Below, piece by piece: positions 10,060 to 31,288 of a stretch of DNA of 31,288 nt; positions within the stretch are counted from its first letter, which is position 1; every line of letters begins with the position of its first letter. The stretch covers positions 1 through 31,288 of IMG/VR virus record IMGVR_UViG_3300028168_000239; one strand, given 5' to 3'. A program made the translations under genes and the position numbers. The notes under the pieces were generated by a model. That model saw only the letters and a program-made list of their open reading frames with translations, was not told where the DNA came from and ran no database searches. The stretch comes from a virus.

Positions 10060-11193
10060 TTAAGCTGCAGCTTTCTTTTTGATACGTAGGAATCCGTTAT
10101 AGCCCACTACGTTACCACCCGTAAATACGGATGCTTTGTAGCTGATGATTCCATCTTTAAATTTGTAATCTGTTGATTTACCAATTTCAACTGATGAGAA
10201 CACAGGCACTTCATAGTTCTTAAGTGCACCATAAGCAATAACATATTCACCAGCAACTGTATTGCTGTCAGAGACCGCTTTACAATGTGAGTTGATGATA
10301 TAAGGGATTCCATCGATTGTCTTGTTGACATAATCGATTGTATGAACTTTGCGACCTTCTTGTGTTTTAAGACCAGCAAATGCTCTTAAGTCATTCTTAT
10401 TTAAAATAAGAACTGCACCACCTTCGATTTCTTCATCTCCACCATAGGCAAAGACAATGTCATCAAGTGTTTGATCAGTGATTGCTTCAATTTCAAGTGC
10501 TGCTTTATCTGCAAGTGCAACGGCTGCATCACTAAAGATTCCAGTGAATGTATTGGTTGTTCCTGCACCACGTAAGATTTGTTCACTGATTTTCTTTTTG
10601 AGTGAAATATTGATATTACGTAATACTTCTGCTTGGTAAGGAATAGAAGGCAGTTTTTCTAACTCTTCAGTAATTTCTGTATAAGCAGTAATCTTCACTT
10701 TAGAAATCGTTAAATAGCCAAATGCAGGTTCAGTTTCACTATAAGGTTGTCCTTCAAGTGTCGTTCCAGCAATGCCATTACTTTTAACAAATGATTTCTT
10801 GTAAGTTTCTCCACCATTTAGGTTGATCACATTGACGCGATCCACAAGCGTTGATACTTGAGCAAATGGAATAGGTGCCAGTCCTGAAGCTGTGTGTTCG
10901 GTTAATAAAATCTCTTCACTTGATACTTGGATAACACGATTTTCACGTAAACTAGCCCCACGCTGTTCTAGTTTCTCTTTATCGATTTTATTTCTGTTAT
11001 CGATTACAATCGGTTTAATTTCTGTTTTGGTTGCGATTGCCATTTTCTTATCAATCACACTACGTTCTTCTTGAAGCTCAGTTGTTTCAGTTTCTAGTGT
11101 TTCAAGTTTGCTAATCTCTGTCTCGTTATCAACAAGACCTCTGATTTCAGTCAGTCTTGATTCGATTTCTTTTCTTCTCAATTCTAAATTCAT
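10060..11193 (-). CDS. HK97-family major capsid protein
   Basis: 377 aa. The first 65 residues form a charged coiled coil, as in the scaffolding delta domain that the protease removes. The HK97-fold body follows, with EGQPYSETEPAFGYLTISKVKI and the spine-helix region EITEELEKLPSIPYQAEV (about 150-195), and IINSHCKAVSDSN and FSSVEIGKSTDYKFKDG near the end. It assembles the icosahedral shell. The ribosome site GAGGAG lies 8-13 nt before the ATG. In the phage without the IS110 element, the protease gene would end about 55 nt upstream; that gap now also holds the insertion. Confidence 0.93.
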   Translation of the reverse strand: MNLELRRKEIESRLTEIRGLVDNETEISKLETLETETTELQEERSVIDKKMAIATKTEIKPIVIDNRNKIDKEKLEQRGASLRENRVIQVSSEEILLTEHTASGLAPIPFAQVSTLVDRVNVINLNGGETYKKSFVKSNGIAGTTLEGQPYSETEPAFGYLTISKVKITAYTEITEELEKLPSIPYQAEVLRNINISLKKKISEQILRGAGTTNTFTGIFSDAAVALADKAALEIEAITDQTLDDIVFAYGGDEEIEGGAVLILNKNDLRAFAGLKTQEGRKVHTIDYVNKTIDGIPYIINSHCKAVSDSNTVAGEYVIAYGALKNYEVPVFSSVEIGKSTDYKFKDGIISYKASVFTGGNVVGYNGFLRIKKKAAA

Positions 11194-11213
11194 CGTTATT
11201 CTCCTCGTATAAT

Positions 11214-11250
11214 ATGTAGTGTAGATTTGAGCTTTGAGAGCTCACTACAT
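11214..11250. repeat. Dyad upstream of the capsid gene, spanning the proposed IS left junction
   Basis: ATGTAGT (11214-11220) pairs with ACTACAT (11244-11250), and inside it GAGCT (11229-11233) pairs with AGCTC (11239-11243), leaving an 8-nt bulge and a 5-nt loop. It lies about 20 nt upstream of the capsid start on the minus strand. If the IS110 boundary is at 11245-11246, half of one arm belongs to the element and the dyad is fortuitous. If it is a true phage leader hairpin, the boundary must be further right. Confidence 0.5.
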
Positions 11251-11253
11251 AAT
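11248..11253 (+). promoter_or_regulatory. -10 half of the IS110 circle-junction promoter
   Basis: CATAAT, 5 of 6 bases to TATAAT, starts 2 nt inside the proposed left end. In a circular intermediate with core CT it would stand 16 nt after the TTGACA at 12845-12850, making a complete sigma-70 promoter facing the RNA and transposase. In the integrated form it has no matching -35. The pairing depends on the proposed ends. Confidence 0.45.
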
Positions 11254-11279
11254 TATTTTATAAGTTGAAGTCCTAGTGT

Positions 11280-11285
11280 TATAAT
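11280..11285 (+). promoter_or_regulatory. -10 box for the bridge RNA
   Basis: A perfect TATAAT lies 7 nt upstream of about 11292, where the first stem-loop of the candidate bridge RNA begins. The -35 position (17-nt spacing, TTTATA at 11257-11262) is a weak match, 4 of 6. It would drive the RNA in the integrated element. Confidence 0.5.
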
Positions 11286-11288
11286 TAA

Positions 11289-11484
11289 GCCAAGGTATAA
11301 CCGAGGAATGTGCTATTTCTCCTTGCGGCTTGTCCGCTATAAAAGCTTGCAAACCTGCTTGTTTGGCTTATCCGCTCACCGGTTGTTGTTCAATGGACAT
11401 GCACTCAACGTTGATCCAAGCTTGTCCAAATGTTCTTATGTGGCGAGGTTGCGGTTGTCTTCCAAGACTAGGACTTCTCTTATA
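11289..11484 (+). ncRNA. Candidate IS110 bridge RNA
   Basis: Structured non-coding RNA between a TATAAT box and the transposase start. Visible parts: a 5' stem-loop (11289-11329; GCCAAG pairs with CTT/GGC around GAGGAA/TTTCTC); a second hairpin with CAAAC (11350-11354) and GTTTG (11361-11365); then an internal loop closed by CCG/CTC (11372-11377) with GAG (11445-11447) and CGG (11452-11454), capped by TGGACATGC/GCTTGTCCA (11394-11402, 11420-11428). On its 5' side ACCGGTTGTT (11378-11387) matches the right end of the element (ACCGGTTGCT, 12856-12865). On its 3' side TTATGTGG (11436-11443) pairs with CTACATAA at the left end with one G-T wobble. These are the expected left and right donor guides. 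The target-binding loop should lie around 11339-11366 but its guides were not resolved. The 3' end is uncertain. Confidence 0.7.
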
Positions 11485-11511
11485 TCTTATTTTCTTGAAA
11501 GTGGTGATTTC

Positions 11512-12747
11512 ATGAATGATTTGTTACAGTATTTATTTGTTGGTATTGATGTTTCTAAGGAAAATAACCAAGTCTATGCTATGAACTTTTCCCAAGAAAA
11601 ACTAGCGTCTTTTTCAACTCCTAATCATCAGTCTGGAGCGAACTTATTAGAAGAGAAACTGCTTGATATTTTAGATAGACATCATCTATCTAAAATCATC
11701 ATTGCGATGGAATCAACCGGAATCTATTCCGCTCATATCGCAACCTATTTATCAGCTTCTAAATTTCTCTTTCCTTTTGAAGTGAAGGTATACGTTTTGA
11801 ATCCAAAAATATCTAGAAACTATCGCCATAGTTTTTCGGACATGGACAAAACGGATCCTAAAGATGCTTTTATTCTCGCTGACCTTGCTAGAGTGGGTCG
11901 TTGTGAGAAACTGACTCCGTTTAAAGGTCCTCAAAAAATTGCGCTTCAACGTCTTACAAGGCATCGTCATCACATTGCTGAACTGCTTGCCAAAGAGAAG
12001 GTTTATGCCCTAAACAACGTCTTTTTAAAGTTTTCTGAGTTTAAAGGAATCTTATCAAATGATTTCTCTAAAACGGCCGTCGAACTATTGCTTAATTTTA
12101 AATCTGTAGATGAAATTATCAATGTTCCTTTAGAGGAATTAGTTGAATTTGTTATGACTTCTTCCAAAAATCGCTTCGCTGATTCAAACCAAATTGCTCT
12201 CACATTGAAGGCTGCGGCCAGAAACTCTTATCGCTTGGATAAAATGGCTTATGAACCCATTAATCTTTCTTTGGCTGCCAGTTTCAACTGTATTTCTACT
12301 TATCAAACTGAACTCAAATCAATCGATTTGGCTATTCTAAAACAAGTCAAAGGACTCAATCAAAATCATTATCTTTCTTTGATTTCCATTCCTGGTATCG
12401 GTCCTGTTTATGCTTCTGGTATTCTTGCTGAAATTGGTCAAATCGATCAGTTCGATAGCGATGATGCGTTAGCTAAATATGCTGGTATTACTTGGCGTAA
12501 ATCTCAATCTGGTACCTTTGATGCTGAAGACACGAGAATGACCAAAACCGGTAATGTTTATTTGCGTTATTTTATTACCGAAGCTGCCAATTTGGCTCGC
12601 ATTCATAACCCTGTTTTTAAAGAGTTTTATCAAAAGAAATTTGATGAGGTTAAAACCCATCGACACAAACGTGCACTCGCCCTCACCGCCAGAAAACTTA
12701 TTCGTTTGATCTATGGATTGTTGAGTACAGATCGACTTTATAAGTAA
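11512..12747 (+). CDS. IS110-family transposase (DEDD recombinase)
   Basis: 411 aa from the ATG at 11512. The frame is open 68 codons further upstream, but that part overlaps the guide RNA and reads as Cys/Leu/Ser-rich noise, while the family N-terminus begins here. The RuvC-like domain holds the DEDD residues D13 (FVGIDVSKE), E67 (AMESTG), D115 and D118 (KTDPKDAF). A coiled-coil linker follows (about 140-200). The C-terminal Tnp domain has SIPGIGPVYASGILAEIG (292-309) and ITWRKSQSGTF (326-336) with the candidate catalytic serine S331 or S333. All key residues are present, so it is probably active. It uses the bridge RNA to join element ends and target. The ribosome site (GAAAGTGGTGA) is modest. 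Confidence 0.93.
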   Translation: MNDLLQYLFVGIDVSKENNQVYAMNFSQEKLASFSTPNHQSGANLLEEKLLDILDRHHLSKIIIAMESTGIYSAHIATYLSASKFLFPFEVKVYVLNPKISRNYRHSFSDMDKTDPKDAFILADLARVGRCEKLTPFKGPQKIALQRLTRHRHHIAELLAKEKVYALNNVFLKFSEFKGILSNDFSKTAVELLLNFKSVDEIINVPLEELVEFVMTSSKNRFADSNQIALTLKAAARNSYRLDKMAYEPINLSLAASFNCISTYQTELKSIDLAILKQVKGLNQNHYLSLISIPGIGPVYASGILAEIGQIDQFDSDDALAKYAGITWRKSQSGTFDAEDTRMTKTGNVYLRYFITEAANLARIHNPVFKEFYQKKFDEVKTHRHKRALALTARKLIRLIYGLLSTDRLYK

Positions 12748-12800
12748 TTAAATCACTTAGTCTTGTTTTACCGTTTTCTTTTTTTAGTATGCTTTGTTTT

Positions 12801-12820
12801 AGACCTTTTGGTCTTTTTTT
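12801..12820 (+). terminator. Rho-independent terminator of the transposase
   Basis: AGACC (12801-12805), loop TTTT, GGTCT (12810-12814), then a run of T to 12820, about 55 nt after the transposase stop and inside the element. On the opposite strand no U-run follows, so phage late transcripts moving left should pass. Confidence 0.75.
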
Positions 12821-12844
12821 TATGATTTTTTTATAATTTATCTC

Positions 12845-12863
12845 TTGACATCGTTACCGGTTG
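12845..12863 (+). promoter_or_regulatory. IS110 right end with outward -35 box and donor sequence
   Basis: A perfect TTGACA (12845-12850) is followed by 13 nt that end in ACCGGTTG, the sequence repeated in the RNA guide, and then the core CT. Placing a -35 at the right end so that circularisation completes a promoter is a known property of IS110 elements. In the present insertion the box points into the 3' end of the phage protease gene. Confidence 0.6.
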
Positions 12864-12867
12864 CTTT

Positions 12868-13461
12868 TTAAATTCGTGTTTTAATTTTAATACGTTTTTT
12901 GATAATAATTGATTTTTTCTCTTGCTCTTCTAACTCCATAGCCTTTAGTTCTAATTCCATAGATTCTAAAGAACGAGCATATATACTAGTTGCATCATAT
13001 GCCGGGGTATCCACAACCGACACATCATACAAGCGGTCTATCTTCGTAATAGTCCTTTTTGGTATTCTACCTTCACGATTCCACACTTGTTCATCAACCG
13101 TAAAAGCAAAACTCATTTTATCTAACAAACCACTTCTGACCATCTTGTAGATGTCTTGATTTGTATTGGTGTCTAGTAACTCAGCACGAACTTTTAAACC
13201 AATATTATCTACGGTTAGCGATAAGGATTGGTTCTTGGTTCTGGCAATAATTAAAAAGGAGTCCATATGATTGTATTTCATAGGAACATCCTTCATTTTA
13301 GTTTCTGATAGTGATCTTGAATCAATCTCTTCAATGAAACCATATTCTTCATCACCGATGAGAGTTTCGTTATTAAAGACTAGTGCATAACCTTCCAAGA
13401 TCATTTTGTCATCTTCCTCATGAAGGGTAACATCTGCGAGTCTAGTTTCCTTGATCATCAT
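12868..13461 (-). CDS. HK97-family prohead protease
   Basis: 197 aa. The fold and motifs of the HK97 prohead protease are clear: EGYALVFN (23-30), the catalytic H65 in YNHMDSFLIIAR, S117 in GLLDKMSFAF, and DVSVVDTPAYDATSIYAR (146-163). It cleaves the capsid delta domain and itself during maturation. The order portal, small protein, protease, capsid is conserved. Its start overlaps the preceding small gene by 20 nt. The stop is 2 nt from the IS110 core, so the C-terminus (KRIKIKTRI) appears intact. Confidence 0.92.
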   Translation of the reverse strand: MMIKETRLADVTLHEEDDKMILEGYALVFNNETLIGDEEYGFIEEIDSRSLSETKMKDVPMKYNHMDSFLIIARTKNQSLSLTVDNIGLKVRAELLDTNTNQDIYKMVRSGLLDKMSFAFTVDEQVWNREGRIPKRTITKIDRLYDVSVVDTPAYDATSIYARSLESMELELKAMELEEQEKKSIIIKKRIKIKTRI

Positions 13462-17547: not shown

Positions 17548-17832
17548 TTATCGTGAAATCAAATTACCGTCTTTATCAAATTGTTGTGAATTCGAGAAAC
17601 GTTTGTGTTCTTCATTATGACATTTCTTACACAATAACTCGAGATTATCTTGATTTAAACTAATCATTGGATCTGTGATATTTTGAACTGTAATCCTTTT
17701 GATATGATGTACTTCTTCACCCAAAGCACCACAACGTTCACACTTCCCATTAGCTTCTCTTATCTTAATTTCTCTTGCTACTTTCCATGCCACAGACTTA
17801 TAAAATCGATGGAGTTCTTTAGGCTTTCTCAT
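17548..17832 (-). CDS. HNH endonuclease
   Basis: 94 aa. A compact HNH nuclease: zinc ligands CERCG (33-37) and CKKCH (69-73), the catalytic EVHHIKR (about 40-46), NQDNLELLC (61-69) and the final HNEEH. Phage HNH proteins of this kind work with the terminase at cos sites, and the gene is near terS/terL here. It overlaps metK by 14 nt, so it is translated in the same unit. The full set of HNH residues is present. Confidence 0.9.
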   Translation of the reverse strand: MRKPKELHRFYKSVAWKVAREIKIREANGKCERCGALGEEVHHIKRITVQNITDPMISLNQDNLELLCKKCHNEEHKRFSNSQQFDKDGNLISR

Positions 17833-18949
17833 ACATCTTTCTCAATTCGATCATCTTATCATCTGCATGTTCCCATCGAACATTTAAATCTTCACGACCG
17901 AAATGACCATACTTAGCTAATTCCTGGAACTTAACTTTATCTAACTCAAGTTCTTTTTTAATGTGTTCTGGTCTGAAATCAAATGATTGAGTTATCAGAT
18001 CCTGTATTTTCTCATCACTTATTACTCCAGTACCAAATGTATTCACATATACACTTACAGGCTTTGCTATACCAATTGCATAGCTTAGTTGCAACTCGCA
18101 ACGTGTCGCAAGATTTGCCCCTACAACGGCCTTTGAAACATATCTGGCATAATAAGCCGCACTGCGATCAACCTTGCTTACGTCTTTACCTGAGAATGCT
18201 CCTCCACCATGCTTAGCATAACCACCATAGGTATCAACGATTATCTTACGCCCAGTTAATCCTGAATCTGCATATGGACCACCGATGATAAACTCTCCTG
18301 TTGGATTGATGAGTATTTTTGCTTCTTTGATTGTCTTATAATCAAATACTTTTGGTAAGATTTCATTGATAATGATATCCTCATAAAGCTCTCTTCTAAT
18401 CCATGATTTCGTTTGTGCTGAAATTATGATAGTTTGCACTTTCTTTGGTTTGCCATTTTCGTAACCAACTGACACCTGACATTTACCATCTGGTCCAAAG
18501 ATATGTGAATATTGCTGTTTACGCGATTTATCAATCTCTTTTGACAATTTGTTAGCTAGCATAATTGGAAGTGGCATCAACTCTTTTGTTTCGTTACACG
18601 CATAACCAAACATAATCCCTTGATCACCTGCACCTTGTTCATGTGATTCACTTGAATCAACTCCAAGTGCAATATCCGGAGACTGCTTGCTAATCTTTTC
18701 CATGACTACAAAACTATCTTCATAGCCAATGTCATAGAGTTTTCTTTTTGTGATATCTTTATAATCTACTTTTGCAGTTGTGGTGACTTCACCAAAAACA
18801 AATACTAAATCATCCTTAATTGCCGTCTCAACTGCTACTCGAGCATTTTTATCTTGTTCTAAAATTGCATCTAGTATCGCATCACTGATTTGATCACAGA
18901 CTTTATCAGGATGTCCGCTAAATACAGATTCACTTGTTATTACTTGCAT
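17819..18949 (-). CDS. metK: S-adenosylmethionine synthetase (phage-borne)
   Basis: 376 aa, near the usual bacterial length of about 384. The family signatures are intact: SGHPDKVCDQISDAILD (11-27) with the ATP-binding histidine, GAGDQGIMFGYA (106-117) and GGGAFSGKDVSKVDRSAAY (248-266). It makes S-adenosylmethionine from methionine and ATP in the cytoplasm. The gene lies between phage genes in the same direction, with a good ribosome site (AAAGGAG), overlapping the HNH gene. Two to four kb upstream is a phage DNA methyltransferase that uses the same product, so a role in supplying methyl donor during phage replication is likely (inference). No truncation is seen. Confidence 0.95.
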   Translation of the reverse strand: MQVITSESVFSGHPDKVCDQISDAILDAILEQDKNARVAVETAIKDDLVFVFGEVTTTAKVDYKDITKRKLYDIGYEDSFVVMEKISKQSPDIALGVDSSESHEQGAGDQGIMFGYACNETKELMPLPIMLANKLSKEIDKSRKQQYSHIFGPDGKCQVSVGYENGKPKKVQTIIISAQTKSWIRRELYEDIIINEILPKVFDYKTIKEAKILINPTGEFIIGGPYADSGLTGRKIIVDTYGGYAKHGGGAFSGKDVSKVDRSAAYYARYVSKAVVGANLATRCELQLSYAIGIAKPVSVYVNTFGTGVISDEKIQDLITQSFDFRPEHIKKELELDKVKFQELAKYGHFGREDLNVRWEHADDKMIELRKMYEKA

Positions 18950-20168: not shown

Positions 20169-21380
20169 CTATAGTGACTTATTTTCAAAGTAATCAAAAT
20201 CGCTTAGTGGAGACTTTTTCCCGTTTCTGATTAAATAGCATGCTTCATTTGACGCTTTATGTTTGATATAGCGTTTCACAATAACATCGATAAACTTTTC
20301 ATCAAGTTCCATCAGAAATGATTTACGATCCAATTGATCGGCAGCAATCATGGTTGAACCTGAACCGCCAAATAAATCTAAGATAGATTCATGACGTCTT
20401 GATGAATTGCTGATAGCTTTTCCAACCAACTCCAAAGGTTTCATGGTCGGATGCTCTTCACTCTTTCTTGGTTTGTTATATTCCCAGATGGTATCTTGCG
20501 TACGGTCGTCAACAAAGTAATGAGCTGCACCTTCTTTCCATCCATATAAAATGGGTTCATGTCTCCAGTGATAGTCTTGTCTTCCAAGTACTAAAGCATT
20601 CTTAACCCAGACTAGACATTCGGCCAGTTTATATCCTGCGTTCTTATATGCATTTCTAAAGTTGAGTCCTTCAGTATCAGCATGGCAAACATAAATTGCT
20701 CCACCTGGTTTTGTATGTTTGAACATATTTTGAAATGCACTATATAAAAAGAGATAGAAGGTATTATCTTCCATCTTATCGTTTTTGATTTTTCCTGCAG
20801 TACCTTCATAGTCAACATTGTAAGGCGGATCAGTAAACAACATATCTACGAGATGACCATCAAGTAATATTTCTACTTGTTTTTCATCGGTTGAATCACC
20901 ACACATGAGTCGGTGTGGTCCTAGTTCATAAATGTCACCAGGTTGTGAAAAAGGTTCTTCTGGCATCTCATCATCGATATCAAAATCATCATCAGATGCA
21001 TTATCAGGAAGTAAGTCTTCCATTTCCTCAAATCCAAACTGAAGCATGTCCATGTCAATATCAGCTAACTCTGCTTCAAGTCTTGATAAATCCCAGGTCG
21101 CAAGTTCTGCTGTTTTATTATCCGCTAAGCGAAATGCTTTGATTTGCGCGTCATTTAAATCATCTGCGATAATACACGGCACTTTTACTAACCCAAGCGA
21201 CACAGAGGCTTTTAAGCGTGTGTGTCCGGCTATAATGACATTATCACTTGTAATGACGATTGGAACTTTAAAACCAAATTCCTTAATCGAGTTAGCAACT
21301 GCTTTTATTGCTTCTTCATTGTTTCTTGGATTGTTTTCGTACTCTTGGAGTAATGATACTTGCTTCATCACGATATTCAT
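20169..21380 (-). CDS. ParB domain-DNA methyltransferase fusion (beta-class, adenine/cytosine-N)
   Basis: 403 aa from the ATG at 21380, chosen because AGGAGG lies 9 nt upstream; a start 7 codons earlier would contain that site. Residues 1-95 form a ParB/Srx-type domain (LLQEYENNPRNNEEA, IIAGHTRLKA). The C-terminal part is an N6-adenine or N4-cytosine methyltransferase with motif IV DPPYNVDY (184-191) before motif I DLFGGSGSTMIA (335-346), the beta-class order, and HPTMKPLELV between. It transfers a methyl group from S-adenosylmethionine to DNA. No restriction nuclease is adjacent, so it is probably an orphan enzyme protecting phage DNA. metK lies 1.2 kb downstream. It overlaps the upstream HTH gene by 65 nt. 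Confidence 0.92.
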   Translation of the reverse strand: MNIVMKQVSLLQEYENNPRNNEEAIKAVANSIKEFGFKVPIVITSDNVIIAGHTRLKASVSLGLVKVPCIIADDLNDAQIKAFRLADNKTAELATWDLSRLEAELADIDMDMLQFGFEEMEDLLPDNASDDDFDIDDEMPEEPFSQPGDIYELGPHRLMCGDSTDEKQVEILLDGHLVDMLFTDPPYNVDYEGTAGKIKNDKMEDNTFYLFLYSAFQNMFKHTKPGGAIYVCHADTEGLNFRNAYKNAGYKLAECLVWVKNALVLGRQDYHWRHEPILYGWKEGAAHYFVDDRTQDTIWEYNKPRKSEEHPTMKPLELVGKAISNSSRRHESILDLFGGSGSTMIAADQLDRKSFLMELDEKFIDVIVKRYIKHKASNEACYLIRNGKKSPLSDFDYFENKSL

Positions 21381-21828
21381 TGATCCAAACCTCCTCGCCA
21401 TTTTCTATGCGCTTAGCCATAAGCTCAATTTCTGCTTTCTTTTCGTTATACTCAATTCCAAATTTTGTAATGAGTAAGTATTTAATTGCTGTGATATCTG
21501 GAAGCGACTGTTTCTTGTATTTCGTAATACGTTTTTTAGTTCCTGTCTTCGTTTCTTCAATCACAGTCTGTGTTTCTTCATATTCAAACCCAATTGCACG
21601 CTTATAAATAGCGTCAACTAGTTTTTGTTTTAATTCCTCATCACCAAATTGAAAAGCATCATCTAATCTTTGATGCACTTTTCTCAATTTGATAATCGTT
21701 TTTTCAGTAACACCTAAATATTCAGCAACTTGTCTTTGAGTAGCTCTTTTTGAAATCATTTCTGATATTGCTTTTAATTTCGTCTCTAGATGTCCAGATT
21801 CTTTCCAGCGCTCATATGTATCAAGCAT
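21316..21828 (-). CDS. HTH DNA-binding protein, small-terminase-like
   Basis: 170 aa from the ATG at 21828 (AAAGGA upstream; a GTG 4 codons earlier has no site). An N-terminal helix-turn-helix (about 28-50, RATQRQVAEYLGVTEKTIIK) is followed by a helical region and the segment AIGFEYEETQTVIEE...PDITAIKYLL, a pattern shared with small terminase-like and DNA-packaging proteins. A P27-type TerS is present elsewhere, so this may be a second packaging factor or a late-gene regulator. It is the first gene after the late promoter. Confidence 0.7.
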   Translation of the reverse strand: MLDTYERWKESGHLETKLKAISEMISKRATQRQVAEYLGVTEKTIIKLRKVHQRLDDAFQFGDEELKQKLVDAIYKRAIGFEYEETQTVIEETKTGTKKRITKYKKQSLPDITAIKYLLITKFGIEYNEKKAEIELMAKRIENGEEVWINEYRDEASIITPRVRKQSKKQ

Positions 21829-23538: not shown

Positions 23539-23731
23539 AACGTGGGTACTCCACTTCTGATAGTTGTTTTAAGAAATCATCAATTTGTTTTTTTGAGAAA
23601 CGCCATTTATTAGCAATTTTGACTCCTTTAAGTTTCCCTATACTAATGTAGGTGTAAATTGTTCTTGGTGTGACACGTAAACTAATAGCAACCTCATTAA
23701 TTGTATAATGCGTGATATCTTCTTTTATCAT
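23525..23731 (-). CDS. Excisionase-family HTH protein
   Basis: 68 aa. A single MerR/excisionase-type winged helix: YTINEVAISLRVTPRTIYTYIS (9-30), then KLKGVKIANKWRFSKKQIDDFL (33-54). Such proteins bend DNA in excision complexes or act as small regulators. It overlaps the tyrosine recombinase gene by 4 nt (ATGA), so the pair could be an integrase with its directionality factor. The transcription order (integrase before this gene) fits co-expression. Confidence 0.8.
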   Translation of the reverse strand: MIKEDITHYTINEVAISLRVTPRTIYTYISIGKLKGVKIANKWRFSKKQIDDFLKQLSEVEYPRYVKK

Positions 23732-24675
23732 TTGTTTTCCTCCTCTTCATTAAACAGGTAATTATTGATGCGAAACTCTGAATCATCGTTAATGCGGTTA
23801 ATGTTATGTGCATAAATAAGTGTCGTTTCGATATTTTTGTGCCTTAGTAATTGTTGAGTGGATTCTAGTGTTCCACCAGCTTGTAGATTTAAATAAGCCG
23901 TTGTATGTCTTAAAGAATGTGGTGTATGTTTTGCATTATAGATACCAGCATTTTTCATCAGAATCGTAATGGATCTTCTTAATGCATTCGATGATAATTG
24001 CTGGCAACTTGATGTTTCTCCATGAGTTACAAACAAATACCTGGAATTATCTCTTCTACGGTTTAGATAATCATTTAAAGCATCGGTCACTTCTGTAGAT
24101 AACTTTACAAATGTATCTGCGCCATCTTTTCCTTTACCGTGAACATATAGAATCGAAAACTTAAATAGCTTTGATAAGTCTGCTTTAGTCGCTCTTACAA
24201 CTTCGATGGAACGAACACCTGTAATAATCATCAAAAGAATAATAGCATAATTACGATAGCCTCTAATATCGGTTTTACTTTGCTTGGCCACTTCAATCAG
24301 TTTAAGGGCTTGTTCTTTATTGAGTGGTTCTTTCTTGTAATTACGATCAATCTTTGCGCCTTTTATTTTCTCTGCAATATTAAACTGATAGACATCCTCA
24401 AATTCAAACTGTCTTTGATTGACTTTTAACCATTGATAAAAATTACGAATGACTACGATTTGTTTTTGAATCGTATTAGCTCTTAATCCTTCTTCCCACA
24501 TTTGTTCTCTGTAATCAATGATGTCAGAACGCTTAGCGTATTGGATGTTATGTCTTTTTAAATAGCGAACGTAACGTAACAGCAAAGCCTTATAGCTATT
24601 GACACTATTCTTCTTAATATCTAGGTTTTCACAAAACAGTTCGATCAACGGTTCTAAAGGATGGGCTTTAATCAT
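23728..24675 (-). CDS. Tyrosine recombinase / integrase (XerC/D-like)
   Basis: 315 aa from the ATG at 24675 (GAGGA 8 nt upstream; a TTG 5 codons earlier is less likely). The N-terminal SAM-like core-binding domain covers about residues 5-105. The catalytic domain has R155 (ITGVRSIEVV), the Lys of HGKGKD (about 181), H253 and R256 (HSLRHT), H279 (LLRHKNIETT) and the nucleophile Y288 (LIYAH), so all active residues are present. There is no arm-binding domain of the lambda type, which makes it Xer-like. It may integrate, resolve or circularise the phage genome, although serine recombinases are also present. Confidence 0.9.
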   Translation of the reverse strand: MIKAHPLEPLIELFCENLDIKKNSVNSYKALLLRYVRYLKRHNIQYAKRSDIIDYREQMWEEGLRANTIQKQIVVIRNFYQWLKVNQRQFEFEDVYQFNIAEKIKGAKIDRNYKKEPLNKEQALKLIEVAKQSKTDIRGYRNYAIILLMIITGVRSIEVVRATKADLSKLFKFSILYVHGKGKDGADTFVKLSTEVTDALNDYLNRRRDNSRYLFVTHGETSSCQQLSSNALRRSITILMKNAGIYNAKHTPHSLRHTTAYLNLQAGGTLESTQQLLRHKNIETTLIYAHNINRINDDSEFRINNYLFNEEEENK

Positions 24676-24937
24676 GTAATTGGTCCTCAAGATATTTTTC
24701 TTCTAAATTGTACAAATCTTGTAGTTCAATTGATAATAAGGTCGCTAACTTATACGCAGTCTTTAAGGATAACCGTTGTCCCTTTCTACCGTTTTCAATC
24801 ATTTCATAATAATTTCTGCTCATTTCAATCATCTCAGACACTTGTAACATCGTGTATTGATTTTTTTTCCTGAAATCATACAAATATTTTCTTTGCGTTG
24901 AACTGTGGTGAAATGCTTTTATCTTTTCTTTATCCAT
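24668..24937 (-). CDS. XRE-family helix-turn-helix regulator
   Basis: 89 aa. A small Cro/CI-type domain: the helix-turn-helix spans about residues 28-52 (YTMLQVSEMIEMSRNYYEMIENGRKG), followed by LSLKTAYKLATLL. It is the first gene of the leftward early operon and faces the repressor gene across the control region, so it is the probable Cro counterpart or an early regulator. The ribosome site is GGGAAGTGAAG. It overlaps the recombinase gene by 8 nt. Confidence 0.85.
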   Translation of the reverse strand: MDKEKIKAFHHSSTQRKYLYDFRKKNQYTMLQVSEMIEMSRNYYEMIENGRKGQRLSLKTAYKLATLLSIELQDLYNLEEKYLEDQLHD

Positions 24938-26490: not shown

Positions 26491-28188
26491 ATGAACACAT
26501 ATGTAGAAGTCATTGAACCAAAAATTCAGTATAAAGATGAAAAAACAAATGAAATAAACGTCAAACGAAAAGTCGCAGCTTACGCTCGTGTATCGACTGA
26601 TGAAACTGATCAGTTAAACAGTTATCAAGTCCAAATCAAAGAATTCACAGAACGGATTAAAAACAATCCGGAATGGGAATTCGCAGGCATGTTTTCTGAT
26701 GAAGGCATAACAGGAACTAATATGAAGAAGCGGATTGGCATGCAAAAAATGCTAGATGCTGCGAGAAACGGTGACATTGATATGATTATCACCAAATCAA
26801 TATCACGCCTTGCGAGAAACACAGTAGATATGCTTACCGTGATTAAAGAAATGCGAGAAATCAAAGTTGAGATCTATTTTGAAAAAGAAAACATCAGTAG
26901 TGCTGATCCAAAGATTGATTTCATCTTAACCATCATGTCTTCGATTGCCCAGGAGGAATCCAGAAACATCAGCGAGAATACCAAATGGGGATTTCAAAAA
27001 CGCTTTGCACAAGGTCAATTAATGATGACCACGACCCATTTTTTAGGGTATGACAAAGATGATGAAGGTCAATTAATCATTAACCAGGAACAAGCAATAA
27101 CCGTTAAATACATCTTCAATCAATATTTAAATGGTATGGGTATTAGCAAACTTGCTAAACATTTAACCGAAAAAGGATATAAAAATGGTCGTGGTGTAGT
27201 CGTTTGGTATGCCGATACCGTAAAAGATATTTTACGAAATGAAAAATATGCTGGAGATCTAATGCTTCAAAAAACAGTAACGGTTGATTATCTTTCTCAT
27301 AAAACAATAGCCAATGATGGCCATGCAACAAAATACTATATCAAAGACAATCATGATGCCATCATTGACAGAGAAACTTTTGATATCGTGCAAACGATGA
27401 TTCATGCAAGAGATATCATCTTAGCCAATGATAACAAGGAACGATTCAAGCATCTCGCCCAAAAACCAATCAAAGGCCTTGTCTACTGTAGTAGATGCAA
27501 ACGCATGTACCGTTCTAAAATGCACAACTCAGGTACTACATTTAAAAAAAGCATGCTGAAATGTCATACCGATAGAAACAATCCGCATAACTGTGATAAT
27601 CCTTCTATTCATGAACCATTAGTAGAACGAGCAACTCTTCATCTCATCAAAGAGCTAACCAAGACAGAAGAGATGCAACAATCGCTTTTTGCTTTTATGG
27701 AAAAATCCTTAGAACAAATTAATTCTCATGAACCACTGAAAAAACTCAAAGAAAAAAGCATTGATCTAGCCAATGAACTCAAAAAACACGTCAGAAGCAA
27801 AATTCGTTCAGGAATGTCTGATGAGGAATACGACAGAATCTATATTGAAATCGAAGGTGAACTAGAACAATGTGAAATTGACATCGTAAATCTTAGAAAT
27901 GAAATCAACCGAGAACTACTCACTAGAAGACGCTTATATGCGTTGACAAACTTTATTGAATCCAACTATGAAGATAAACGCATCATCAAGAGTTTCTTTG
28001 GAATGATTCTTGTCGATGGCAAAAATCACCTAAAGTATATCTTAGATGACACGTTTTCAATTATCGATGATTTACATGAAAAAATCGATATTATTAAAAA
28101 ATGCAAGCCTTTCTTAAAGGGCAAATATTATGATGAGGCAACAAGTAATACAGTAACCTATGAGGTAATTAAATATGAAGGACATTAA
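26491..28188 (+). CDS. Large serine recombinase (first of a pair)
   Basis: 565 aa. Resolvase-type catalytic domain (about 25-170) with nucleophile S35 in AAYARVSTDE, TKSISRLARN (101-110) and EGITGTNMKKR (71-81). A recombinase domain follows (about 180-310). The zinc ribbon has Cys at 333, 336, 358 and 368 (CSRCKRMY, LKCHTDRNNPHNC), and then a long coiled coil (about 395-480) that in this family controls direction. It catalyses strand exchange between short attP/attB sites. AAAAGGAGG precedes the ATG. The next gene overlaps it by 14 nt. Being next to the right junction, it is the likely integrase of this prophage. Confidence 0.93.
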   Translation: MNTYVEVIEPKIQYKDEKTNEINVKRKVAAYARVSTDETDQLNSYQVQIKEFTERIKNNPEWEFAGMFSDEGITGTNMKKRIGMQKMLDAARNGDIDMIITKSISRLARNTVDMLTVIKEMREIKVEIYFEKENISSADPKIDFILTIMSSIAQEESRNISENTKWGFQKRFAQGQLMMTTTHFLGYDKDDEGQLIINQEQAITVKYIFNQYLNGMGISKLAKHLTEKGYKNGRGVVVWYADTVKDILRNEKYAGDLMLQKTVTVDYLSHKTIANDGHATKYYIKDNHDAIIDRETFDIVQTMIHARDIILANDNKERFKHLAQKPIKGLVYCSRCKRMYRSKMHNSGTTFKKSMLKCHTDRNNPHNCDNPSIHEPLVERATLHLIKELTKTEEMQQSLFAFMEKSLEQINSHEPLKKLKEKSIDLANELKKHVRSKIRSGMSDEEYDRIYIEIEGELEQCEIDIVNLRNEINRELLTRRRLYALTNFIESNYEDKRIIKSFFGMILVDGKNHLKYILDDTFSIIDDLHEKIDIIKKCKPFLKGKYYDEATSNTVTYEVIKYEGH

Positions 28189-29812
28189 AGTTATTGAATC
28201 CAATCAATCAAGAGGACATAAGCATATTATCAAGCGAGTCGCAGCGTATGCCCGAGTATCCACCAAACAAGAAATGCAAGAATCATCTTTAGATCTTCAA
28301 GTTAGGCATTATGCTAAAGAAATCATATTCAACCCAGATTATATTTTTGCTGGGATTTATTATGACCATGGAAAAAGTGGGACATCAATGATTAAACGAG
28401 ATGGATTACAAGCGTTGTTAAAAAAAGCATATGCTGGACATATTGATCTTGTGTTGGTTAAATCGTTATCACGCTTTGCGAGAAATACGATTGATGCGTT
28501 AAATGTTATTAGGGAAACAAGAAAACTAGGCGTAGAGTTCTTCTTTGAAAAAGAAAACCTATATTCATCAGATAGTACCATTGATATGATTCTAACCATG
28601 ATGGCAGGACTTGCTGAAGCTGAGTCTCAACAAATATCATCGAATATACGCTGGGGACACCGTAGTCGTGCAAAAAATGGAAAAGTTCATATATACCCTA
28701 CATTTGGATACGACATCACCAAAGATAGAAAATTCGTTATTAATGAAACTCAAGCAAAAGCTGTTCGAAGTATCTATCAAATGTATCTTGAAGGTAAAAA
28801 AATAAATGAAATACTTATTTATTTACAATACCAGGGTTTTAAAACAAGTAAGGATAAGAGATTCGATAATTCTCAACAAATACGAAATATCTTATGCAAT
28901 GAAAAATACATTGGTAAAGTAACCTATGGTAAAAGCTTTACTAAAATCGATGGACGAGAAAAAAAGGTTGTTATCAACAATGGAGAACAACCAAAATACA
29001 TTATTAATAATCACCATGAACCTATCATTGATATAGAAACCTATAATAAAGTCCAATCAATGTTTAAACAGCAAAAAGAAAAAAGGGCAAAGACTCAAAA
29101 AGCAGACTACAGTAATTATGAAAAGTTTGCATATTCTGTTCGACACGAAGCTTTCCTGCAACGCAAACAAAAAGGAGTGGTAGATGATGAAGGTAGTGAA
29201 CCTACACCTTATTTCTGTAAATCACAGGTACCCGGTTTTTATGTCAAACACGCATCGAAGGTCCTCTTCCGTTCTTTAAACGCACTGTCGCGAAAATTTG
29301 ACCGTATAGAAGCATTATTTGACGCCCAGGTTGATGATATACTCTCTAAACAGAAACTGTCAAAGAAACTAAGTAAACAAGAAAAAATACTTGAAGATTA
29401 TACGAGACAATATTATAAGTTGGAACGTAAAACATCAAAAGATAAAAAGGATCGAATGATGCTTTATGAGTTAGAAACGCTTATCATTCAGGAAAGTATG
29501 AATTATACGGTATTAGAAGATGAGTATAACTCTATTGAAGAACATTTTAGCCATGCACAAAACATAAAAAAACATATCAAAGAACTCAAATATCCAACTG
29601 AAGCTTTAACGCCAGAGAACGTAAATGATATCTTTGAAGGGTTCCTCATTGAAGATTATGGTAGATACATTGCATTCATTAATATATCTAATAAAGAACT
29701 CACTCCAGAAGCAATGAAAAATGCAGTAACGAATCCGCCACTGCACACAGGTGCTTATAAATCCACTGGTCGACATGATGCAGAAATAAAGTGGAGCATC
29801 ATTCTAATGTAA
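28175..29812 (+). CDS. Large serine recombinase (second of a pair, no zinc ribbon)
   Basis: 545 aa. The catalytic domain is intact: S29 in AAYARVSTKQ, KSLSRFARNT, and HGKSGTSMIKRDG. The recombinase domain is present (about 175-300), but the paired cysteines of the zinc ribbon are missing; only isolated Cys occur (LCNEK, YFCKSQ). A coiled coil (about 390-470) follows. Its ATG lies inside the end of the first recombinase gene (14-nt overlap, GAGGT upstream), so the two are made together. It may act as a partner subunit, as with the CcrA/CcrB pair of SCC elements, or have a different site preference. It ends 170 nt from the junction with the epimerase gene. Confidence 0.92.
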   Translation: MKDIKVIESNQSRGHKHIIKRVAAYARVSTKQEMQESSLDLQVRHYAKEIIFNPDYIFAGIYYDHGKSGTSMIKRDGLQALLKKAYAGHIDLVLVKSLSRFARNTIDALNVIRETRKLGVEFFFEKENLYSSDSTIDMILTMMAGLAEAESQQISSNIRWGHRSRAKNGKVHIYPTFGYDITKDRKFVINETQAKAVRSIYQMYLEGKKINEILIYLQYQGFKTSKDKRFDNSQQIRNILCNEKYIGKVTYGKSFTKIDGREKKVVINNGEQPKYIINNHHEPIIDIETYNKVQSMFKQQKEKRAKTQKADYSNYEKFAYSVRHEAFLQRKQKGVVDDEGSEPTPYFCKSQVPGFYVKHASKVLFRSLNALSRKFDRIEALFDAQVDDILSKQKLSKKLSKQEKILEDYTRQYYKLERKTSKDKKDRMMLYELETLIIQESMNYTVLEDEYNSIEEHFSHAQNIKKHIKELKYPTEALTPENVNDIFEGFLIEDYGRYIAFINISNKELTPEAMKNAVTNPPLHTGAYKSTGRHDAEIKWSIILM

Positions 29813-30238: not shown

Positions 30239-31288
30239 TCATTCATACATATCGTTATAATAATTCTGATATTCGCCACTAATAATATTTTTAATCCAGT
30301 CAGTATTTTCCAAATACCAATTAACAGTTTTTTTTAGCCCTTCTTCAAATGAGTATTTTGGAACCCATTCGAGTTCTGATGTTATTTTTGTATTATCAAT
30401 AGCATATCGCTTATCATGCCCCGGTCGATCGGGTACAAATTGGATTAATGAATTGTCTTTTCCCAAAATATGAATTATCGATTTGATAATTTCAATATTA
30501 GCTTTTTCGTTATTTCCGCCAACATTGTAAATTTCTCCAGTTCGGCCATTGTTTAGAATGGCTTCTATTGCAGAACAATGGTCTTCAACATATAACCAGT
30601 CTCGAATTTGTTTTCCATCCCCATATACAGGTATTTTTATATTAGTCAAACAATTATTTATTATAAGAGGCATTAGTTTTTCCGGAAATTGAAATGGGCC
30701 ATAATTGTTTGAACAACGAGAAATCAAAGTAGGTAATCCAAATGTATTGTGGTAGGATCTCACAATTAAATCTGCAGATGCTTTTGATGCAGAATATGGA
30801 CTGTTGGGTAATAACGGCATCGATTCCACAAATAATCCTTCCGCGCCGAGCGCACCATATACTTCGTCTGTTGATACTTGGAGAAATTTAACATTAGACT
30901 TATATTCAACACTATATTTATCGTTCGGAAAAATTTTCCATTTTTTTTTTGCAACATCGAGCAATATTTGTGTGCCAAGAATATTTGTTGTTACAAACGT
31001 TTCCGGATCTATAATACTTCTATCAACATGTGACTCCGCTGCAAAATTGACAACAGTGTCTATTTCCCATTCATTAAATACTGTTTCTATTTGTTTCCTA
31101 TCACAGATATCACATTTGATAAATATATAGTTACTTTTCAATGAAACAGAAGCAAGATTATTCAAATTTCCAGCATATGTTAATGAATCTACATTTATAA
31201 AACGGCAAATAGGATATCGATCAATCATATATCTTATAAAATTACTTCCTATAAATCCCGCTCCTCCAGTAACAAGAATATTTTTCAT
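30239..31288 (-). CDS. rmlB: dTDP-glucose 4,6-dehydratase
   Basis: 349 aa, full length. Signatures: the NAD-binding TGGAGFIGSNF (7-17), NFAAESHVDRS (81-91), the catalytic STDEVYG, the YSASKAS (YxxxK) pair, and NNYGPFQFPEKLMPL with RDWLYVEDH further on. It converts dTDP-glucose to dTDP-4-keto-6-deoxyglucose, the second step of dTDP-rhamnose and related deoxysugar synthesis, for cell-surface polysaccharides. The ATG is the last codon of the window, so its promoter and upstream genes are not visible. The interrupted epimerase is the next gene of the operon. Confidence 0.95.
   Translation of the reverse strand: MKNILVTGGAGFIGSNFIRYMIDRYPICRFINVDSLTYAGNLNNLASVSLKSNYIFIKCDICDRKQIETVFNEWEIDTVVNFAAESHVDRSIIDPETFVTTNILGTQILLDVAKKKWKIFPNDKYSVEYKSNVKFLQVSTDEVYGALGAEGLFVESMPLLPNSPYSASKASADLIVRSYHNTFGLPTLISRCSNNYGPFQFPEKLMPLIINNCLTNIKIPVYGDGKQIRDWLYVEDHCSAIEAILNNGRTGEIYNVGGNNEKANIEIIKSIIHILGKDNSLIQFVPDRPGHDKRYAIDNTKITSELEWVPKYSFEEGLKKTVNWYLENTDWIKNIISGEYQNYYNDMYE

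What the first reader, a model, noticed from the sequence alone, without database searches (positions are those of the whole stretch)
11289..11484. Bridge RNA with readable donor guides in a prophage-borne IS110 element
Seen: a non-coding block between TATAAT (11280) and the transposase folds into a 5' stem-loop, a second hairpin and an internal loop. The 5' strand of that loop (ACCGGTTGTT, 11378) repeats the right end of the element (ACCGGTTGCT, 12856) at 9 of 10 positions. The 3' strand (TTATGTGG, 11436) is complementary to the proposed left end (CTACATAA, 11245) with one wobble. Known: IS110 bridge RNAs bind donor DNA in this orientation, with one guide on each side of a loop. Inference: this is the donor-binding loop of an unstudied bridge RNA.
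Basis: partly seen in the sequence, partly recalled or inferred. Interest (0 to 1): 0.8.

Follow-up and report, generated by a model that had tools for sequence, protein, structure and literature searches.

The report
Bridge RNA aimed at ribosome-binding sites

Summary
The core claim holds: 11206-12865 is a 1,660-bp IS110-group element whose left non-coding end encodes a bridge RNA. Fifteen relatives support one structure (37 pairs, 16 with compensatory change, 0/500 shuffles). The left donor guide ACCGGTTG-TT (11378) matches the right end ACCGGTTG-CT (12856), and this match covaries across the family.

Three details are wrong. The left end is 11206 (CT|CGTATAATATG), not 11245: 76 phage contigs span the uninterrupted site. 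The right donor guide is CGAG (11444-11447), pairing with core plus left end CTCG; the proposed CTACATAA:TTATGTGG pairing does not covary. TATAAT at 11280 lies in a conserved RNA stem-loop; the likely promoter is the circle junction TTGACA-N17-TATAAT.

Its left guide UUCUCCU (11317-11323) matches TTCTCCT, the complement of the capsid gene's Shine-Dalgarno sequence, where the element sits. In 30 of 41 insertions across Bacillota/Mycoplasmatota an ATG opening a reading frame lies 12-14 nt from the left end (null 0.9%). One Clostridium lineage carries a changed guide (CAUUUGUCCU) and sits in matching TTTGTCCT repeats. The mechanism is known; this target class was not found in the papers held.

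The parts
11206..12865 (+). whole IS110 element, 1,660 bp, counting one CT core (right copy)
   Evidence: empty site in 76 phage contigs; same ends in relatives; length
11193..11205 (+). left target flank TCGTTATTCTCCT; CTCCT is the complement of the capsid gene's Shine-Dalgarno AGGAG; 11204-11205 is the CT core
11208..11213 (+). TATAAT, -10 half of the circle-junction promoter
   Evidence: 17 nt from TTGACA once the ends are joined, same spacing in relatives
   Evidence: 5 pairs with change on both sides, 0/500 shuffles reach it
11267..11277 (+). 5' arm of the basal helix (GAAGTCCTAGT)
   Evidence: pairs with 11467-11477; 100% of cells paired, 4 pairs with compensatory change
   Evidence: 100% of cells paired, one pair UA to CG on both sides
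11314..11323 (+). left target guide, UAUUUCUCCU; UUCUCCU (11317-11323) matches the left target
   Evidence: covaries with the left flank in relatives, p = 5e-5
11324..11337 (+). apical hairpin of the target-binding loop (GCGG...CCGC)
   Evidence: 3 of 4 pairs with compensatory change
11338..11345 (+). right target guide, UAUAAAAG; AAAAG pairs with CTTTT at the right flank
   Evidence: covaries with the right flank, p = 0.001
11357..11375 (+). 5' arm of the donor-loop closing stem
   Evidence: pairs with 11449-11466; compensatory changes in three helices
11378..11387 (+). left donor guide ACCGGUUGUU
   Evidence: matches the right end; covaries across the family
11444..11447 (+). right donor guide CGAG; UUAU at 11436-11439 may add broken pairing with the -10 box
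   Evidence: CGAG present in every complete relative examined, opposite an invariant CTCG; the UUAU part is inference
11467..11477 (+). 3' arm of the basal helix (ACTAGGACTTC)
11512..12747 (+). IS110 recombinase, 411 aa; DEDD = D13, E67, D115, D118; serine S333
   Evidence: PF01548 and PF02371; aligned to IS621, PDB 8wt6
12845..12850 (+). TTGACA, -35 half of the circle-junction promoter
12856..12865 (+). left-donor sequence at the right end, ACCGGTTG plus CT core
12866..12876 (+). right target flank TTTTAAATTCG
   Evidence: empty site

Best explanation
This is an IS110-group insertion sequence with a bispecific bridge RNA of the IS621 type. After excision as a circle, the joined ends (TTGACA-N13-CT-CG-TATAAT) form a promoter that makes an RNA of about 260 nt. 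Its donor-binding loop recognises the circle junction: left guide ACCGGUUGUU for the right-end side, right guide CGAG for CTCG at the left-end side. Its target-binding loop recognises DNA at a Shine-Dalgarno sequence: left guide UUCUCCU pairs with the strand that bears AGGAG, right guide AAAAG with CTTTT. The recombinase joins the two at the shared CT core without target duplication. In this element and in a wide clade of relatives in Bacillota and Mycoplasmatota the left target guide resembles the anti-Shine-Dalgarno tail of 16S rRNA, so the elements land directly upstream of ribosome-binding sites, 12-14 bp from the start codon, with the left end facing the gene. Shown by sequence: ends, scarless empty site, covarying RNA structure, guide/end and guide/target covariation, position at Shine-Dalgarno sequences. 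Inferred: transcription from the junction, RNA-protein binding, catalysis.
For: Recombinase domains and catalytic residues. Empty sites. Same ends and 17-nt junction spacing in relatives. RNA structure: 97.7% of cells paired, 16 pairs with double change, 0/500 shuffles. Donor guide covariation p = 5e-5. Target guide covariation p = 5e-5 (left) and 0.001 (right). ATG opening a frame 12-14 nt from the left end in 30 of 41 insertions, null 0.86%. Annotated start codons 13-14 nt away in eight plasmid records. Retargeted lineage G556 with changed guide and changed site. Guide rules as in IS621 (PMC11208160).
Against: No RNA or protein data. No circle junction found in assemblies. The internal TATAAT is also a good extended -10 site, so an internal transcript start is possible. 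A few elements match their target poorly (L004, L036, L052). Relatedness of sequences is not fully removed by the permutations. Selection against insertion inside genes could account for part of the Shine-Dalgarno position: 26% of all CTCCT sites in G033 are such sites.
Confidence: 0.88

Rival explanations
1. One reading: left end at 11245, right donor guide UUAUGUGG pairing with CTACATAA, bridge RNA started by TATAAT at 11280.
For: 8-nt complementarity with one wobble is present; TATAAT at 11280 with TTTATA 17 nt upstream scores 10 of 12 plus extended -10.
Against: Empty sites and relatives fix the end at 11206. No covariation of the proposed pairing. The TATAAT is an arm of a conserved stem-loop and the basal helix starts upstream of it.
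Confidence: 0.03
2. The bridge RNA guides only to a short CTCCT-type core; the concentration at Shine-Dalgarno sites is mostly the result of selection against insertions inside genes, not of an evolved anti-Shine-Dalgarno guide.
For: CTCCT sites are often Shine-Dalgarno sites anyway (26% in G033).
Against: 8 of 8 G033 copies sit at such sites (about 2e-5 at a 26% rate, counting GTG/TTG starts and one short frame). Guides match beyond CTCCT, e.g. CACUCCU, UCAUCUCC. The same class of target recurs with different guides over many genera.
Confidence: 0.3
3. The structured leader mainly regulates recombinase translation or transcription, as an attenuator, and its matches to the ends are incidental.
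For: ISPpu9 transposase is regulated by small RNAs and 5'-UTR structure (abstract of PMC8450116); the basal helix ends about 35 nt before the recombinase start codon.
Against: Guides covary with both donor and target, in the loop positions and strands known for IS621.
Confidence: 0.03

Closest known systems
IS621 and its bridge RNA (IS110 group; PMC11208160, PMC11208158)
   Same: DEDD/serine recombinase; RNA in the left end; 5' stem-loop, then target loop, then donor loop; left guides match top strand and right guides match bottom strand, all including the CT core; junction promoter; no target duplication.
   Different: Longer left end (306 nt before the start codon against 191 nt in IS621), an extra 5' hairpin and a long basal helix around the RNA; target is a Shine-Dalgarno sequence instead of REP elements; short, invariant right donor guide.
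ISEc21 and ISEc11 with seekRNAs (PMC11187229)
   Same: RNA-guided choice of target and donor ends; circle with promoter; no duplication; natural retargeting between close relatives.
   Different: Targets differ (for ISEc21 a conserved region in IS3-family transposase genes); ISEc11 is of the IS1111 type with the RNA on the other side of the gene.
IS110 elements of Priestia, Alicyclobacillus, Bacillus, Anoxybacillus, Enterococcus, Lactococcus and Streptococcus phage phiD12 (L137-L142, L148-L152, L155-L159)
   Same: Recombinase 36-46% identical; CT|CGTA left end; CGAG guide; most with a start codon 12-14 nt from the left end.
   Different: Other donor guides, each matching its own right end; -10 hexamer varies.

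Membership tests
IS110 family, IS110 group | DEDD RuvC-like N-terminal domain and C-terminal domain with conserved serine | tested here: met
   PF01548 and PF02371; D13, E67, D115, D118, S333 align with IS621 D11, E60, D102, D105, S241
IS110 family, IS110 group | long left end, short right end, RNA in the left end | tested here: met
   left end 306 nt, right end 118 nt; covarying RNA in the left end
IS110 family, IS110 group | no target duplication; shared core dinucleotide | tested here: met
   76 spanning empty sites, CT at both ends
IS110 family, IS110 group | circular intermediate with junction promoter | tested here: inconclusive
   promoter geometry conserved; the junction itself was not found in assemblies
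Bridge RNA | donor-binding loop with left and right donor guides matching the element ends | tested here: met
   left guide covaries; right guide CGAG invariant with CTCG, so covariation cannot be shown for it
Bridge RNA | target-binding loop with guides matching the flanks | tested here: met
   including the retargeted lineage G556
Bridge RNA | RNA is transcribed and bound by the recombinase; needed for recombination | not testable with these tools
   needs RNA sequencing, binding and recombination assays
IS1111 group | RNA on the right side of the gene, long right end | tested here: not met
   right end is 118 nt and the structured RNA lies in the left end

The most novel reading that the evidence does not exclude
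A wide clade of IS110 elements in Bacillota and Mycoplasmatota uses a bridge RNA whose target guide mimics the anti-Shine-Dalgarno tail of 16S rRNA. It thereby treats the many ribosome-binding sites of a genome as landing sites, inserting between promoter and Shine-Dalgarno while leaving the gene and its Shine-Dalgarno intact: a general rather than single-site strategy for an RNA-guided element, with occasional retargeting (Clostridium G556).
Probability: 0.7. Interest if true: 0.7.

Novelty: new member of a known kind. Interest (0 to 1): 0.6.

Why it matters
The best-studied bridge-RNA elements seek particular repeats. A clade that carries an anti-Shine-Dalgarno guide would explain how an RNA-guided element finds a conserved, gene-proximal and abundant target in many hosts, including phage genomes and enterococcal plasmids. 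It would separate genes from their promoters at a predictable point, and it supplies dozens of natural guide/target pairs for learning which mismatches bridge recombinases tolerate.

Tried and rejected
Rfam gave no match in the window. First searches with a wrong recombinase frame failed. One guide-extraction script failed on a regular expression. One structure string had the wrong length. The circle junction was not found in ten genomes or in viral contigs. A pattern search for the left end in viral contigs found only the one relative already known. Considered: that L002 and the window share one ancestral insertion. Recombinases are 67% identical while capsid, protease and portal proteins are 84-87%, which favours separate insertions at the same site but does not prove it. 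No covariance model was built, because pair counts already answered the question. No structure prediction was run, because the recombinase family is clear by sequence.

Full report
WHAT WAS CHECKED. The window is a virus record of 31,288 bases. The element lies between a major capsid gene (PF05065, 10060-11193, minus strand) and a prohead protease gene (PF04586, 12868-13461, minus strand). The recombinase is 411 aa from 11512. The 479-aa ORF from 11308 reads through the RNA and is an artefact.

ENDS. Relatives were found in a viral contig, in Acholeplasmataceae, other Mycoplasmatota/Bacilli and Clostridium, and in plasmids and phages. In the close relatives the left end is CT|CGTATAAT and the right end TTGAC-N14-CT. 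Seventy-six of the fetched phage contigs, with capsid proteins 79-96% identical, align without a break across the flanks joined at the CT. The element is therefore 11206-12865, with no target duplication.

JUNCTION PROMOTER. Joining the ends gives TTGACA-17 nt-TATAAT. The 17-nt spacing holds in all relatives with both ends, although the -10 hexamer varies in the distant ones. A junction promoter is described for IS621 (PMC11208160). Expression here is inferred.

RNA STRUCTURE. An alignment of 15 left ends gives 37 consensus pairs: a basal helix (11267-11277 with 11467-11477), a stem-loop (11278-11301), a target loop with its own apical hairpin, and a donor loop with a multi-part closing stem. 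97.7% of cells pair, against 89.3 +/- 0.7% in shuffles. Sixteen pairs have compensatory changes. Sliding by one column drops pairing to 33-43%. A further hairpin at 11215-11250 also shows compensatory change. It also scores as an extended -10 site, so an additional internal start cannot be excluded. An RNA starting there lacks the 5' arm of the basal helix and folds no better than shuffles (z +0.39, against -3.67 for 11219-11484).

DONOR GUIDES. In relatives both change together: CCAGTCG in Clostridium, CCGTTGG in Alicyclobacillus, CGCAGG in Priestia and Cytobacillus, and CACAAG, CACATG, CATTAG or CACTAG in Enterococcus, Bacillus velezensis and Lactococcus (p = 5e-5). For the right guide, every complete relative examined has CGAG, complementary to the core plus left end CTCG. 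Being invariant, this pairing cannot be proved by covariation. The upstream UUAU may pair with the ATAA of the -10 box in a broken manner, as the IS621 right guide pairs discontinuously (PMC11208160; PMC11208158); this part is inference.

TARGET GUIDES. The left target guide covaries with the left flank (4.79 of 7 positions against 3.44 +/- 0.24 permuted, p = 5e-5, and still so without the G556 elements). The right target guide covaries with the right flank (3.33 of 6 against 2.60 +/- 0.22, p = 0.001). Examples: L008 guide UCAUCUCC in a TCATCTCC site; G033 guide CACUCCU in seven CACTCCT sites; G556 guide CAUUUGUCCU in TTTGTCCT repeats.

WHAT THE TARGET IS. CTCCT on the element's top strand is the complement of AGGAG. 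In the window it is the Shine-Dalgarno of the capsid gene, and the start codon is 12 nt from the left end. In 30 of 41 insertions an ATG opening a frame of at least 40 codons (or running to the contig end) lies 12-14 nt away, against 0.86% of random positions (p about 3e-53, although related insertions are not fully independent). In eight plasmid records the annotated start codon of a neighbouring gene is 13 or 14 nt away; two of these share one site. The Bacillus velezensis guide shares AUCACCUCCU with the 16S rRNA 3' tail sequence GGATCACCTCCTTTCT, which is present in genomes G031 and G033; that this string is the 16S tail is established knowledge. Of all CTCCT sites in 300 kb of G033, 26% are such sites, so selection against intragenic insertions may add to the effect.

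CONSEQUENCE FOR THE PHAGE. The capsid gene keeps its Shine-Dalgarno but is cut off from upstream DNA by 1.66 kb in opposite orientation. Whether late transcripts read through is unknown. Of the loci examined only this window and L002 carry an insertion there. L002's recombinase is more diverged (67% identical) than its phage proteins (84-87%), which suggests separate insertions at one site.

NOVELTY. Mechanism and anatomy are those of IS110 bridge RNAs. In the held literature no paper was found that ties IS110 elements to Shine-Dalgarno targets. The seekRNA target survey does not mention it in the text read here. The library lacks most subscription papers and all bioRxiv preprints, and figures and supplementary logos could not be read, so this is absence of evidence only.

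Noticed in passing
L050, L053-L055 (genome G556, genus Clostridium): Four copies with a changed left target guide CAUUUGUCCU, sitting in TTTGTCATTTGTCCTTTG-type repeats instead of Shine-Dalgarno sites: a natural retargeting.
   Followed up: partly
L149-L151, L155 (Enterococcus plasmids): Enterococcal IS110 elements about 37-40% identical to this recombinase show the same CCTCCT or CCTCT-type left flank, most with a start codon 13-14 nt away; L149 lies about 300 nt from the start of vanR.
   Followed up: partly
L153 (Enterococcus faecium, recombinase 32% identical): A more distant IS110 element with a different non-coding region and no CT|CGTA left end; probably outside the Shine-Dalgarno group.
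   Followed up: no
L002 / IMGVR_UViG_3300038652_000435: A related phage carries a diverged copy of the element at the same site ahead of the capsid gene, probably a separate insertion.
   Followed up: partly
17819-18949 (-) and 20169-21401 (-): The phage carries an S-adenosylmethionine synthetase gene and, nearby, a ParB-domain DNA methylase gene.
   Followed up: no
26491-28188, 28175-29812 (+) and 23728-24690 (-): Two overlapping large serine recombinases in tandem plus a tyrosine recombinase in one prophage.
   Followed up: no
30239-31288 (-): Nucleotide-sugar dehydratase gene at the right edge, probably host DNA, so the prophage boundary is likely near 29.9 kb.
   Followed up: no
11215-11250: A covarying hairpin directly at the left end, with a comparable one in Clostridium (GTTTTGTAGTTAG...CTAACTACAAAA in L011); role unknown.
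   Followed up: partly
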